A stretch of DNA of 64,000 nt from Chloroflexus aurantiacus J-10-fl (GTDB lineage: Bacteria; Chloroflexota; Chloroflexia; Chloroflexales; Chloroflexaceae), in NCBI RefSeq assembly GCF_000018865.1, contig NC_010175.1, positions 4,464,001-4,528,000 on the forward strand, written 5' to 3'. The position numbers were made by a program, and so were the translations under genes. The notes under the pieces were generated by a model, which saw only the letters and a list, made by a program, of their open reading frames with translations, was not told the origin of the DNA and did not search any database. Shown here one piece after another: positions 21,564 through 27,551 of the stretch (position 1 is the first letter of the stretch; each line of letters begins with the position of its first letter).

Positions 21564-22262
21564 TCACTCCTCGGTTGGTACCGGTGAAGCGGGATGGGTG
21601 TCTTCCCAGCGCACCGACTCCACAGCACCAATCCCCTGCAAATGGGCGATGTCGTTGTACGAATTGAGCCGCCAGAGCTGTTGATGCCGTCGATTCACGC
21701 GCTCCCACCAGGTAATGCTGGTATTGCGGGTGTGAAAATCAATGGGCGGCACCACCAGACTCGGCATACGGAAGAAGTGGATAAACGAACAGTCGATCAC
21801 CCCACCGTGACAGACGACTACAATCGTTTTACCCTCATACTCGGTGGTAATGCGGGTCAGCGCCCGGCTCACCCGCAAGGTGAAATCGCCCCAGCTTTCA
21901 CCGCCGGGGGCAATCGGACGCAACGGATACCGATCAAAATCCGGTACTCCAAACAACGCCCAGGCTTCCTGGTTCGTCATGCCATCGGCTTCACCAACCC
22001 GCAACTCCTGCACGTCATCATCGAAGATGATGGGCAGCCCCAGGGCAGGCTGAATAATCTCGGCAGTCTGGCGGGCACGCGGCAAGGTGGATGAAATCAG
22101 CACATCGGCTTTGATCTCACCGCTGGTTGCCAGCCGGTCACGCAGTCGTTCGGCCTGCGCGATCCCACGTTTGGTAAGCCCGGCATCTCCGCGCATGCCG
22201 GCAACAATTGGTTGAACATTAGCGACCGACTCACCGTGACGGATCAGATATAAGTGTGTCAT
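21564..22262 (-). CDS. Histidine phosphatase family protein (phosphoglycerate-mutase-like)
   Basis: 232 residues from the ATG at 22260-22262, preceded by AGGGGA. The catalytic motif LIRHGES starts at residue 5, and the second catalytic His is in VVCHGGVID. A longer frame upstream has no family similarity and is not taken. Members are phosphatases or mutases acting through phosphohistidine; substrate unknown. Only 6 nt separate it from argJ, so it heads the arginine transcript. Confidence 0.87.
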   Translation of the reverse strand: MTHLYLIRHGESVANVQPIVAGMRGDAGLTKRGIAQAERLRDRLATSGEIKADVLISSTLPRARQTAEIIQPALGLPIIFDDDVQELRVGEADGMTNQEAWALFGVPDFDRYPLRPIAPGGESWGDFTLRVSRALTRITTEYEGKTIVVVCHGGVIDCSFIHFFRMPSLVVPPIDFHTRNTSITWWERVNRRHQQLWRLNSYNDIAHLQGIGAVESVRWEDTHPASPVPTEE

Positions 22263-22688
22263 AGTCCCCTGTGCTCTGTAATGGCGAATACATAGAAGAA
22301 GCCAGCCTGCGCGCTGGCAAGCTGGCCTGAGAACATTCCTTCCAGAAGTGCAGGCGCGGCTAGCCAGTGCGTGTGACTGGCTGACGACGGTGACGACGAC
22401 GGTCATAAAATACAGCCGTGCGGCTGTGAGAACAAATACAGACAGTAAACGTCGTAAACATCGTCTCCTCACCTGCTGCGATCAACGTGAGTAGTATACC
22501 ACAGATTGATCGAATGCTGATACGCTGTTACGCGGCAGGACGGGAGGCTGATTGGGTATGTGAGGGTCCACACTATGGTGCCTTCTGATGGGTAATGAAT
22601 ACGATCCAGCGATGCTGTGGACGTGGTGATGCAATGTACAACGCTTAATGCACGCAGATACACCTATCTCTGTTATGGTATTTATTGC
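22263..22688. other. Intergenic region at the edge of the foreign-looking patch
   Basis: Short GC-rich inverted repeats occur near 22310-22400 (GCCAGC/GCTGGC cores). Composition changes from GC-rich to AT-rich towards 22688. No gene or promoter could be supported. Confidence 0.5.
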
Positions 22689-23612
22689 TTATACAAATGT
22701 CAATTGTAGTGGTTTGTCAGATTCTACTGATGGTGTAATTGCTGTTGCAAAGCCTGGTTTTATCAATAATGCTTCTTCCATCTCATTTCGTAAGTCTTCT
22801 GTCGAACCTACATGATAAAAATGAGAAACTGTCCGCTCGATCAATCCGTTCCAATATTGAGCGATGTGCTGATTTTGACGATATCGGTTTTCTTTCCACA
22901 TAGACAACGCAAAGCCACAAGGCAGATGCTGCGTCACCGTTGCTAACTCAGCCGCATCATGTTCAGTCCATTGTTGATAGTAATCTGTATGTCTGCCAAT
23001 GTAAGGCGGATCAAGGTAGACAAAGTCGTCCGGCGTAACATGGTGCAGGCAATCTCGCCAATCTCCAATCCGAAACTCCCACGCTTTGCCTTTCATAATA
23101 TTACGAATCTGAGTTATTTGATTAACGATTTTCGTGATATATGCCTGACGAAAGCGATCTGTCTTTCGACAAAACGGAACATTAAATTCACCTTTTTTAT
23201 TAAAACGCATGACACCGTTAAAACATGACCGATTCAAGAAAATAAAATCCAAGGGATCACCACTTTTGTTAAAACGTTCCCTGACAAAGTAGTAGTAATC
23301 TTCGCCTTTTAATAATAGCTTCTTTCCTTCTTCTGTCAAATACTTTCGTACAGTTTCAGGAAATATTTTTCCTTCATATATCATCTGATACAGGCGTATG
23401 ATATGAGGATTGATGTCATTTACAATTGCATAATCGGGCTGAACATTGAAAAGTACAGCTCCTGAACCTAAAAATGGCTCAATCCATCGTCCCTGACCGT
23501 GCCAGGAGATATTACTTAGAATAAACTTAGTCAGTTTAGTCTTAATTCCTTGACACTTTATTGGTGGAACAATGACTCGTTGTACTGTACGTGGTAAACC
23601 TCTAGTGTTCAT
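22689..23612 (-). CDS. D12-class DNA adenine N6-methyltransferase
   Basis: 307 residues. The order is that of Dam/EcoRV-type alpha-class methylases: PPIKCQGIKTKL, SAM-binding EPFLGSGAVLF, FLNRSCFNGVMRFN, and catalytic YLDPPYIG. It transfers a methyl group to adenine N6 in a short DNA site. The preceding gene is an EcoRV-like endonuclease overlapping it by 11 nt, so the expected target is GATATC or a relative (inference). Codon use is AT-richer than the flanks, which suggests transfer. It appears intact while its partner is broken. Confidence 0.9.
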   Translation of the reverse strand: MNTRGLPRTVQRVIVPPIKCQGIKTKLTKFILSNISWHGQGRWIEPFLGSGAVLFNVQPDYAIVNDINPHIIRLYQMIYEGKIFPETVRKYLTEEGKKLLLKGEDYYYFVRERFNKSGDPLDFIFLNRSCFNGVMRFNKKGEFNVPFCRKTDRFRQAYITKIVNQITQIRNIMKGKAWEFRIGDWRDCLHHVTPDDFVYLDPPYIGRHTDYYQQWTEHDAAELATVTQHLPCGFALSMWKENRYRQNQHIAQYWNGLIERTVSHFYHVGSTEDLRNEMEEALLIKPGFATAITPSVESDKPLQLTFV

Positions 23613-24390
23613 ATTGTAAACCTTTATACCGCAAATAGCTTCGTAGATCTGTATATGGTGGTCTGACCAATTCTGCTGCTCTTGCCATATCTTTAGTCAG
23701 GTAAAACATCCAGTAGTCATCAAAAATGTCTTCACCGAGTAATGCAAAAGGGCCTGTTCCACTTAAAAGTCTGCTGATTTCTGTAACGGAACCTATATTC
23801 TTTGTGTTACCACTGCCTGGACGATCAGAGGCTATTTTGTATTTCTCATGCACAAAGAATTGAAAATCTCTGATAACCGAGATAATTCTTTCAATATCTT
23901 CCAGGTTATATGTTCTTCGTTCGTCAATAGATGTATCTGCCTTTGAATAAATGATACCCAGAACAAAGTGTCCGCTGTACGAACCGTAGGGGAAAGTCAC
24001 ATTCTTTGTGCTGTGCCGCTCGCGAAAATATCCTGTAAAGCTGCCCAGTGTCATGCCGTTAACGCGATCATTATCAATTCGGTAAGTACTTTTCAGATCA
24101 AGCGCAAAGCGATTACCGTCAACATCCACGAAACTTATATCTGGATAGAAATTCTGTTATTCAGACAAGAACATTTTAAGCTGGTTTTGTTCGGCGAATT
24201 GTGCTAATCGGGGAAAAAGAAGGATTTCCAAAAGTTTTGAGATGACTTTCGTATCTGCCGAAATCGTGTAAATATTCCTGGCTACGTCAATAAAACCTTT
24301 GACAATCCAGTCACCGGTTTGTGTTGAAACGACCGGGTTGAATGTTGCTACTTCATTTCGCAGAGCTTCCAGGAATTGGCTGCGATTCAT
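23602..24390 (-). pseudogene. EcoRV-like type II restriction endonuclease, interrupted by one in-frame stop
   Basis: A single continuous frame of 262 codons contains one TAA at 24157-24159 (codon 78). Both sides resemble EcoRV as I recall it: ISADTKVISK before the stop, and YPD, ALDLKSTY, STKNVTFPY, GSGNTKNIGS after it. The catalytic set (Asp84, Asp98, Lys100) is preserved downstream. The stop aligns with a Gln of EcoRV just before the YPD motif, so one CAA-to-TAA change would explain it. Length matches EcoRV (about 245). Sequencing error or readthrough are alternatives. A start within the second half would lack the dimer N-terminus. Confidence 0.85.
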
Positions 24391-25136
24391 GTTTTCGTCC
24401 GTCAAAAGTGGCTCATGTTCAAAAAAGTAGTCCAACCTAACCACTGAGCGATACACCCAAGAGCGATCCGTTGCTCATTGATACGAACTTCGCCTATCGC
24501 CACAAATGCAGCCAGATACGTTTTGTGTACGCCACGAAACGGGTGCAGACCAGTGCGCACCGTTATCCATCATCCCTCGCAGGTGGTCACATGCACCACT
24601 CGTTTCCTATCTCTTTGTGTGTCCGGACCCGGTGGCCATGGTCCAACGTGCGATGCACCCAGGCACGATGCGCATATCTTCGTTATGCATCGGTGCCGAG
24701 CATCGCCTGTGCTCAGTGCAGTGCTCCACGCGCTGTGCTTCATCGGTGCCACGCCCACCGCCTGGCCATGGCAACCCATTGGGATGGACATCGTTCATCA
24801 CCACTGGTCACTGCGTTCATCATCGAACAGGTCATCAATTGGACATTCCATAGCTCTCCTTTGATACAACAATTCTGTCACAGTATACTATATCGCACTG
24901 ATTTTGAACATGAGCCTCAATCTTTCATCCATATCAATCAATAGTAACCTGTCTCAACATAAGGTTGCCTGAAAGAAGTTTTCGTTGTACCATACGTGCA
25001 CACACACCCAATCACACCCACAGACGGCTTTGAGAGTGATACAAACTGATCAGAAGCAGCTTGATTAAAACCGTCCTGGTTCTAAATCGTATAGAATATG
25101 CCTGTCCTCTATTCCCAATAATGTGAAAGCACGAAC
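24391..25136. other. Intergenic region between the restriction pseudogene and the ATPase gene
   Basis: About 0.75 kb. Positions 24530-24800 are GC-rich with many short repeats of GGTGCC, CATGG and ATGCAT words, unlike the AT-rich DNA on both sides. The overlapping short frames here are not supported as genes. No convincing promoter was found for the ATPase. Confidence 0.55.
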
Positions 25137-26324
25137 ATGAACACCCTCACAGTGTATAATTTCGGCCCAATAACATCAGCAAGTGTTACCTTTTCAGATT
25201 TGACAGTCTTTGTTGGTCCACAGGCTACAGGTAAAAGTATTTTTCTCCAGTTGCACAAATTACTGCTGGATATTGTTCCGATTCGCAATCGATTCAAGCG
25301 TTTCAATGTCGATTGGGCGGGAAAGACGAGTCATTTCCTTGAGTTGTATTTTGGTGAAGGCATGGCTAATCTGTACCAGCCTGAGAAAACACAGATTCTC
25401 AGTAATAATATCGCTGTTCAACTAGAAAGAGTCATTTCTGAAAACAGTCGTCATCGGCAAGAGAAAGAGAAGATGTTCTACATCCCTGCGCAACGAGTGA
25501 TGAGTTTGCGTGATGGATCGACCCGACCATTTACTGAGTACCGTTCAGGTGATCCCTTTGTGTTGCGTGAGTTTAGCGAAACAGTACATAACCTGCTCCA
25601 ATCAGAATTCGCAGTATCTTCGCAACTGTTCCCACCGGAACATCGCCTCAAAAAGCAATTACGAACTATGCTGCTGGAACATGTTTTTGGTAGCTTTGGG
25701 TTACAGATTGATACAGAGCACTCAGTAAAACGCATCGTCCTTAGTAGCAGAGAGGGGGAAGTAAAGCTACCGTATTCAGTGTGGTCAGCAGGTCAGCGCG
25801 AGTTTGTACCACTACTACTGGGACTTTATTGGTTGTTGCCGCCTAATCGCATGCGTCGCAATGCGCTGGAGTGGGTTGTTATTGAAGAACCTGAAATGGG
25901 TTTGCATCCAAGGGCAATCTCTGCTCTGCTGGCCCTGGTGCTAGAGCTGCTTGCACGTGGCTACAAAATCTGTATTTCGACCCACTCGCCGCATATTCTG
26001 GATATCGTTTGGGCATTGCAGATTATGCAAAAGCATCAAGGAACAGCACAGGATGTCCTGGATATGCTCCATCTCTCCGTAGATCAGGAGACAAGAAAAC
26101 TTGCTTCAAGTGCGTTAGCAAAAGGTTCAAAGGTCTATTTCTTCAAGCGCGATGGAAATGTGATCGATATTTCTGGCCTTGATCCGGGTTCAGAGGATGG
26201 TGATGAGTCTGGTTGGGGTGGATTAACGGAATTTAGTGCCAACGTGGGCGATGTGGTTGCACGTGTGGTCAATCGCTCGACCGGAGGGGCTGCGTTTCCC
26301 TTGCAAACGAGCCAATGTTTGTGA
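25137..26324 (+). CDS. OLD/AAA15-like ABC-class ATPase
   Basis: 395 residues. Walker A is GPQATGKS, followed much later by a signature-like SAGQREFVPLL, Walker B WVVIEEPEMGLHP and the H-loop ISTHSPHIL. This is the arrangement of AAA_15/AAA_21 and OLD-family ATPases, many of which act in phage defence with a nuclease partner. No TOPRIM domain is present in the C-terminal 100 residues, which are acidic and Gly-rich, and no partner gene is adjacent. It sits beside the broken restriction system and shares its AT-rich composition. Defence role is inference. Confidence 0.8.
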   Translation: MNTLTVYNFGPITSASVTFSDLTVFVGPQATGKSIFLQLHKLLLDIVPIRNRFKRFNVDWAGKTSHFLELYFGEGMANLYQPEKTQILSNNIAVQLERVISENSRHRQEKEKMFYIPAQRVMSLRDGSTRPFTEYRSGDPFVLREFSETVHNLLQSEFAVSSQLFPPEHRLKKQLRTMLLEHVFGSFGLQIDTEHSVKRIVLSSREGEVKLPYSVWSAGQREFVPLLLGLYWLLPPNRMRRNALEWVVIEEPEMGLHPRAISALLALVLELLARGYKICISTHSPHILDIVWALQIMQKHQGTAQDVLDMLHLSVDQETRKLASSALAKGSKVYFFKRDGNVIDISGLDPGSEDGDESGWGGLTEFSANVGDVVARVVNRSTGGAAFPLQTSQCL

Positions 26325-26371
26325 ATAAGGTAGGCGCCTTTTTAAGAACATTCATACAGAGAAATTGCACA

Positions 26372-26392
26372 GGGCACCACCTGTGGGTGCCC
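26372..26392. terminator. Hairpin between convergent genes
   Basis: GGGCACC (26372-26378) pairs with GGTGCCC (26386-26392). It lies between the stops at 26324 (+) and 26442 (-). Confidence 0.45.
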
Positions 26393-26441
26393 CTTCGGCA
26401 TACAGTTCAGTGTACTGCCGCTGGCTGTCAATCCATCCACT

Positions 26442-27551
26442 CTACACCACAATCAGCTCACGGGGGAAGGTGGTCAGTGAGCGACTACCATCGGGGGTGA
26501 TGACCACATCATCTTCTATACGCACACCGAACTGACCGGGCAGGTAGATGCCTGGTTCAACGGTGAAGGTGGTGCCTGGCAACAATGGTGCATCACTGCC
26601 GGCAACAATGTTGGGCAGTTCGTGGGTTTCCAGGCCGAGGCCATGGCCGGTGCGGTGAACAAATGCTGCCCCGTAACCGGCATCCTCGATCACCTTGCGC
26701 GCCGCGGCGTCAATCGTGGCGCCGCTCACGCCGGGCCGGCAGGCGTTGCGGCCAGCCGTGTTCGCTGCCAGCACGATGTCGTAGACGTGGCGGGCCATGG
26801 GGCCGGGATCGCCAATCGCTATCGTGCGGGTAATGTCTGAATGGTAACCCTGGTAGACGGCACCGCAGTCGATAATCACCAGATCACCGGTTTGCAGTAT
26901 GCGATCACTGTTTTCGTGGTGAGGATTGGCAGCATTGGGACCACTGGCTACCATATTCGCGAAGCTCTCGCCGTCGGCACCGGCTGCCAGGATGGCGTCG
27001 CTCAGCATACGCGAGAGGGTTCGCTCGCTCAGTCCGGCACGAATCTGTCTGATGAAGGTATGCAATGCCTGCTCGACAATCGCTACGGCGCGCTCCATAA
27101 GCGCCAGCTCTTCGGCATCTTTAACCATCCGTAGTTCACTCAGTAGCGGATCAAGATCAGCCGTGCGCAGACCGGGCGCAACAGCCTCCAATGCCCGCAG
27201 CTCCATCACCCGCATGACGGTGTGCTCAACGGCCAACGGTTTATCTGGTACGGTGGCGCCAAAAGCGGCTGTGATGCCGTCTGCCAATGCCTTCAATGGC
27301 CCTTCGGCATCACTCCAGGCAAAGAATTGGGTTGCGAAAGGAACACTTGCCCGCACCCGTTCGAGTTCGAGCTGGGGCAGCACCATAACCGGTGGGTTAC
27401 CGTTCGCCGGTAGCAAGAGCAGGGTGAGCCGTTTTCCGGGATGAAAGCGCAGGCTGGTGAGATAGGCGAGATTGGTAGCCGGCATCAAGGCGGCACCGGC
27501 GTAATCTGCGGCAACCAGACGCTCTACCAGGCGGGACAGACGTGCAGACAT
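26442..27551 (-). CDS. M24 family aminopeptidase (Xaa-Pro type)
   Basis: 369 residues with an N-terminal creatinase-like domain and the C-terminal pita-bread metallopeptidase fold. Metal ligands are visible in IIDCGAVYQGYHSDITRT, HRTGHGLGLETHE, TVEPGIY and the final GVRIEDDVVI. It likely cleaves X-Pro peptides (PepP/PepQ group). GAGGAG precedes the ATG. The ketopantoate reductase-like gene lies 22 nt upstream on the same strand. Confidence 0.9.
   Translation of the reverse strand: MSARLSRLVERLVAADYAGAALMPATNLAYLTSLRFHPGKRLTLLLLPANGNPPVMVLPQLELERVRASVPFATQFFAWSDAEGPLKALADGITAAFGATVPDKPLAVEHTVMRVMELRALEAVAPGLRTADLDPLLSELRMVKDAEELALMERAVAIVEQALHTFIRQIRAGLSERTLSRMLSDAILAAGADGESFANMVASGPNAANPHHENSDRILQTGDLVIIDCGAVYQGYHSDITRTIAIGDPGPMARHVYDIVLAANTAGRNACRPGVSGATIDAAARKVIEDAGYGAAFVHRTGHGLGLETHELPNIVAGSDAPLLPGTTFTVEPGIYLPGQFGVRIEDDVVITPDGSRSLTTFPRELIVV

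What the first reader, a model, noticed from the sequence alone, without database searches (positions are those of the whole stretch)
23602..24390. EcoRV-type endonuclease inactivated by a single in-frame TAA beside an intact methyltransferase
The frame is continuous across the stop, and the catalytic Asp, Asp and Lys remain. The stop sits at a Gln codon position (CAA to TAA) just before the YPD catalytic strand. This looks like a very recent loss of restriction with retained methylation.
Basis: partly seen in the sequence, partly recalled or inferred. Interest (0 to 1): 0.6.

Follow-up and report, generated by a model that had tools for sequence, protein, structure and literature searches.

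The report
Broken EcoRV restriction gene, methylase kept
A hot-spring bacterium carries an EcoRV-like DNA-cutting enzyme gene cut short by one stop codon, while its partner protective methylase gene is still whole; this is a tidy example of an ordinary kind of gene decay.

Summary
The frame 24390-23602 reads as a full-length EcoRV-family endonuclease interrupted once, by TAA at codon 78 (24159-24157). Pfam Endonuc-EcoRV matches it at E=3.6e-106 when the stop is written X. The genome is a single 5,258,541-bp contig, the size I recall for Chloroflexus aurantiacus J-10-fl. Close relatives have CAA or CAG (Gln) at this codon, aligned with EcoRV Gln68. A congener keeps an intact relative, 76% identical. 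The genome holds no second EcoRV gene. The methyltransferase beside it is full-length, with its motifs conserved.

Best reading: a type II restriction-modification operon whose restriction half was lost by one nonsense mutation, leaving what is probably a solitary GATATC methylase. 'Very recent' is supported only as an upper bound (under about 1.5% neutral divergence since the stop).

Two additions: a 507-bp IS1595-like remnant with perfect 15-nt inverted ends lies 20 bp upstream of the endonuclease ATG, and a 337-bp, 98.5%-identical scrap of the operon junction lies about 365 kb away beside an IS element.

Methylation, expression and strain distribution were not testable here. GATATC is depleted across the genus, so its scarcity is uninformative. 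The kind of event is well known; interest is low.

The parts
23602..24390 (-). EcoRV-family type II restriction endonuclease gene, disrupted (ATG at 24390-24388, TAG at 23604-23602)
   Evidence: PF09233 E=3.6e-106 with X at the stop; solved EcoRV E=2e-32; only EcoRV-family match in the genome, reported with '1 TAA' inside
24157..24159 (-). In-frame premature TAA, codon 78, aligned with EcoRV Gln68 in the Q-loop just before the Tyr-Pro-Asp74 strand
   Evidence: Translation; alignment with EcoRV; CAA/CAG in close relatives
22689..23612 (-). Intact D12-class (Dam-like) adenine methyltransferase, 307 aa, start overlapping the endonuclease stop by 11 bp
   Evidence: PF02086 E=3.4e-44; TIGR00571 E=1.3e-54; PADLOC MTase_II E=6e-116; FLGSG and DPPY motifs aligned with nine relatives; 48% identical to the methylase on the E. 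coli EcoRV plasmid
24410..24916 (.). 507-bp non-coding insertion-sequence remnant (IS1595-like) with perfect 15-nt terminal inverted repeats GGCTCATGTTCAAAA, 20 bp upstream of the endonuclease ATG
   Evidence: Inverted repeats; 19 ends of the family in this genome against 0 for the control pattern; shorter copies with 8-bp target duplications; longer relative carries a weak IS1595 zinc-ribbon match, E=8e-4, below cut-off

Best explanation
This is an EcoRV-type restriction-modification operon (endonuclease first, methyltransferase second, overlapping by 11 bp) in which a single C-to-T change in a Gln codon created a TAA at codon 78. Translation ends before all three catalytic residues, so no active endonuclease is made (inferred from the sequence and the known EcoRV structure). 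The methyltransferase gene is intact and most likely still marks GATATC, leaving a solitary methylase (inferred). A host that keeps the methylase survives loss of the endonuclease, so such a mutation is tolerated and can spread by drift, by relief from self-cutting, or because incoming DNA is no longer restricted. The operon lies in a stretch that differs between Chloroflexus species, was probably acquired horizontally, and sits next to insertion-sequence debris.
For: Full-length EcoRV match with one internal stop. Gln at the stop column in close relatives. Same gene order and near-overlap in relatives. Methyltransferase intact, with only 5 deviations at 137 otherwise invariant columns. No second EcoRV gene in the genome. 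Seven deviations at 117 invariant endonuclease columns, all conservative (BLOSUM62 0 or more), so the frame was under constraint until recently. The neighbouring methyltransferase ends in TAA, so TAA works as a stop here. The finished genome is reported at 11-fold coverage with under 1 error per 100,000 bases (PMC3150298). C. aggregans and another congener have a different gene in the slot between the same two flanking genes.
Against: No reads, methylation data or second strain of the species could be examined, so an error or a laboratory mutation is not formally excluded. Methyltransferase expression is unproven: both genes probably shared transcription, an insertion-sequence remnant lies 20 bp upstream, and about 555 nt of untranslated message now precede the methyltransferase.
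Confidence: 0.87

Rival explanations
1. The stop is a sequencing or assembly error, and the operon is intact in the organism.
For: Single substitution, no other lesion, otherwise constrained frame.
Against: Finished Sanger genome at 11-fold coverage, stated error under 1e-5 (PMC3150298). Expected error-made nonsense in this 789-bp gene is at most about 789 x 1e-5 x 0.044 = 3.5e-4 (nonsense fraction). Broken EcoRV frames are not rare among related loci (about five with frameshifts or truncation), so real loss has a far higher prior.
Confidence: 0.05
2. The stop is real but strain-specific or arose during laboratory culture; wild strains are intact.
For: The limit of about 1.5% neutral divergence is compatible with zero time.
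Against: No direct evidence; no second strain of the species is held in the collections searched.
Confidence: 0.3
3. Low-level readthrough or a suppressor tRNA still yields some endonuclease, a deliberate down-tuning.
For: The frame beyond the stop is conserved.
Against: TAA is the least read-through stop (general knowledge); there is no repeat tract that could switch the frame on and off (sequence); TAA ends the neighbouring gene; a recent mutation explains the conserved frame without any special mechanism.
Confidence: 0.03
4. The methyltransferase is also silent, and the whole operon is dying.
For: Insertion-sequence remnant 20 bp upstream; possible polarity from the premature stop; methyltransferase start overlaps the endonuclease stop, suggesting coupling.
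Against: The methyltransferase coding sequence shows no lesion.
Confidence: 0.25

Closest known systems
EcoRV restriction-modification system (E. coli plasmid, GATATC)
   Same: PF09233 endonuclease with Asp74, Asp90, Lys92, Glu45, the QN of the Q-loop and the GSGNT-N recognition loop in the DNA; paired with a D12 adenine methyltransferase (48% identical)
   Different: Endonuclease truncated at codon 78; the genes here lie in the same direction and overlap, whereas they are divergent on the E. coli plasmid (opposite strands)
Intact EcoRV-type operon of a congener (G006, locus L061)
   Same: Same gene order, 76% identical endonuclease and 77% identical methyltransferase
   Different: Intact endonuclease, CAA at the codon in question, different genomic location
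Solitary (orphan) methyltransferases left by decayed restriction-modification systems
   Same: Intact methyltransferase beside a disrupted endonuclease
   Different: Disruption here is a single nonsense mutation, so an early stage of the process

Membership tests
EcoRV-type restriction endonuclease (PF09233) | Full-length match to the family profile above the curated cut-off | tested here: met
   354.5 bits against 25, profile 2-244 of 244, with X at the stop
EcoRV-type restriction endonuclease (PF09233) | Catalytic Asp74, Asp90, Lys92 encoded | tested here: met
   YPD and LDLK align with EcoRV YPD and IDIK (the listed chain carries A in place of T after the Lys); all lie beyond the stop
EcoRV-type restriction endonuclease (PF09233) | Uninterrupted open reading frame giving active enzyme | tested here: not met
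   TAA at codon 78
EcoRV-type restriction-modification operon | Cognate D12 adenine methyltransferase adjacent | tested here: met
   PF02086, TIGR00571 and PADLOC MTase_II; same pairing in relatives
EcoRV-type restriction-modification operon | Recognition and methylation of GATATC | not testable with these tools
   Recognition loop conserved; GATATC depleted in this genome but also in a congener without EcoRV
Solitary methyltransferase | Intact methyltransferase without an active endonuclease of the same specificity in the genome | tested here: met
   Methyltransferase intact; one EcoRV-family match in the genome, with the stop. Endonucleases of other families with the same specificity were not excluded
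Solitary methyltransferase | Methylation occurs in the cell | not testable with these tools
   No modification data held

The most novel reading that the evidence does not exclude
The GATATC methylase is being kept for a new role, for example gene regulation or immunity against EcoRV-like systems still present in congeners, with loss of restriction being selected rather than neutral.
Probability: 0.07. Interest if true: 0.4.

Novelty: new member of a known kind. Interest (0 to 1): 0.17.

Why it matters
It is a clean early-stage case of how a restriction-modification system becomes a solitary methylase: one substitution, everything else preserved, an intact congener for comparison. It also predicts that this strain can accept unmethylated GATATC-bearing DNA, of practical use for genetics in Chloroflexus. 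The phenomenon itself is well known.

Tried and rejected
GATATC avoidance as a sign of past restriction: observed/expected 0.32 in this genome, 0.37 in C. aggregans-sized G004 without the family, 0.28 in G006 with an intact system, so it is a genus-wide pattern and says nothing about this operon. Pairwise dN/dS for dating: synonymous sites saturated against all close relatives. Search of IMG/VR contigs for either allele around the stop: none. Literature on an EcoRV-type system or a methylome of this organism: none found in the library. A second intact copy of the endonuclease in the genome: none; only a junction fragment lacking the stop region, so it cannot show the ancestral codon. Rfam on 22200-26500: nothing.

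Full report
What is there. The window is positions 4,464,001-4,528,000 of a single 5,258,541-bp contig. That length, as I recall it, is that of Chloroflexus aurantiacus J-10-fl; the organism name is from memory, not from a tool. The finding lies on the minus strand. From ATG at 24390 the frame runs 77 codons, meets TAA at 24159-24157, and continues open to TAG at 23604-23602. With the stop written X, the 262-residue frame matches Pfam Endonuc-EcoRV over the whole profile (354.5 bits, E=3.6e-106), and each half matches alone. Against solved structures the best matches are all EcoRV (E=2e-32). The stop aligns with EcoRV Gln68, followed by Gln69, Asn70 and Tyr-Pro-Asp74. The catalytic Asp74, Asp90 and Lys92 are encoded, all beyond the stop. 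The recognition loop GSGNT-x-N is conserved.

Relatives. A family search of the own genome and 40 related genomes found EcoRV-family genes in five, including this one. One congener (G006) has an intact copy, 76% identical in the endonuclease and 77% in the methyltransferase, in the same order but at another genomic place. Another (G007) has a distant one (46%). A scan of species genomes gave 26 more loci, mostly Chloroflexota with a few from other phyla. In the closest relatives the codon at the stop column is CAA or CAG; in one of the next group it is CAC. So CAA to TAA, a C-to-T transition, is the simplest history.

How recent. Synonymous sites are saturated against every relative, so no direct dating is possible. 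There is no second stop or frameshift, and at 117 columns invariant in ten relatives this copy differs at seven, all conservatively. An intact relative (L015) deviates at as many. Simulating neutral change after the stop, P(no second stop or indel and no radical change at those columns) falls to 0.09 at 1% and 0.04 at 1.5% divergence. The loss is therefore probably younger than about 1.5% neutral divergence; it could be zero.

Is it an error? The genome paper reports 11-fold coverage and an error rate below 1 in 100,000 (PMC3150298). With 4.4% of one-step changes in this gene giving a stop, an error-made nonsense in it has an expectation of at most about 3.5e-4. Broken EcoRV frames are not rare among related loci: L011 and L030 have frameshifted endonucleases beside complete methyltransferases, and L020, L031 and L064 also carry frameshifts, although some may be faults of metagenome assemblies. 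Real loss is the far likelier reading.

The methyltransferase. The gene at 23612-22689 overlaps the endonuclease stop by 11 bp. It is a D12-class adenine methyltransferase, full-length against nine relatives, with FLGSG and DPPY intact and 5 deviations at 137 invariant columns. It is 48% identical to the methylase on the E. coli EcoRV plasmid. Whether it is expressed is open. Translation of the first gene now stops early, leaving about 555 nt of untranslated message before the methyltransferase start, which could reduce its expression if the two are coupled.

The setting. Between the same two flanking genes (a phosphoglycerate-mutase-like gene and a Xaa-Pro peptidase), C. aggregans-sized G004 and congener G001 have a single unrelated gene of about 365 codons, so this slot is variable. 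Immediately upstream of the endonuclease, 24410-24916 is a 507-bp element with perfect 15-nt inverted ends. The end sequence occurs 19 times in the genome with up to one mismatch, against none for the reversed control. Copies of 102-214 bp elsewhere have 8-bp target duplications, and a 998-bp relative carries a weak IS1595 zinc-ribbon match. It is thus a non-coding IS1595-like remnant. Its own flanks (TCAAAAGT and TCAATCTT) match at only five of eight positions, so the insertion is probably older than the copies with perfect duplications. The endonuclease frame was evidently maintained with it in place, which is inference.

A 337-bp piece, 332 of 337 identical to 23307-23643 (methyltransferase start and last codons of the endonuclease), lies at 4,852,416-4,852,752 next to a DDE transposase gene. 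It shows that part of the operon was duplicated or that a second copy once existed. It does not reach the stop codon.

Site avoidance. GATATC is at 0.32 of expectation in 400 kb of this genome, but also 0.37 in a congener without the family and 0.28 in one with an intact system. It cannot be used as evidence of past activity here.

Verdict. The word 'recent' needs the qualification above, and retained methylation is a prediction. The system is a new instance of a familiar event.

Noticed in passing
window 24410-24916: 507-bp IS1595-like remnant with perfect 15-nt inverted ends, one of a genome-wide family of short elements (102 bp to 1.7 kb) with 8-bp target duplications; looks like a MITE family of this genome.
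   Followed up: partly
L065:7417-7753 (G000:C1:4852416-4852752): 337-bp fragment of the endonuclease-methyltransferase junction, 98.5% identical to window 23307-23643, next to a DDE transposase gene whose end sequence (AACCTATTTCAAAAA) abuts the fragment.
   Followed up: partly
window 25137-26324 (+): AAA-family ATPase gene, full-length match to the PADLOC candidate defence protein PDC-M56A (E=5.5e-143); not found near EcoRV operons in any of the other loci fetched.
   Followed up: partly
L011, L030: Two other Chloroflexota loci with frameshifted EcoRV-family endonucleases beside complete methyltransferases, so restriction loss with methylase kept recurs in this lineage (metagenome-assembled, unverified).
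   Followed up: partly
L073-L132 (400 kb samples of three Chloroflexus genomes): Many palindromic hexamers (CGTACG, CAGCTG, GAGCTC, TTCGAA, GGGCCC) are very strongly depleted across the genus, down to 1 observed against about 84 expected for CGTACG.
   Followed up: no
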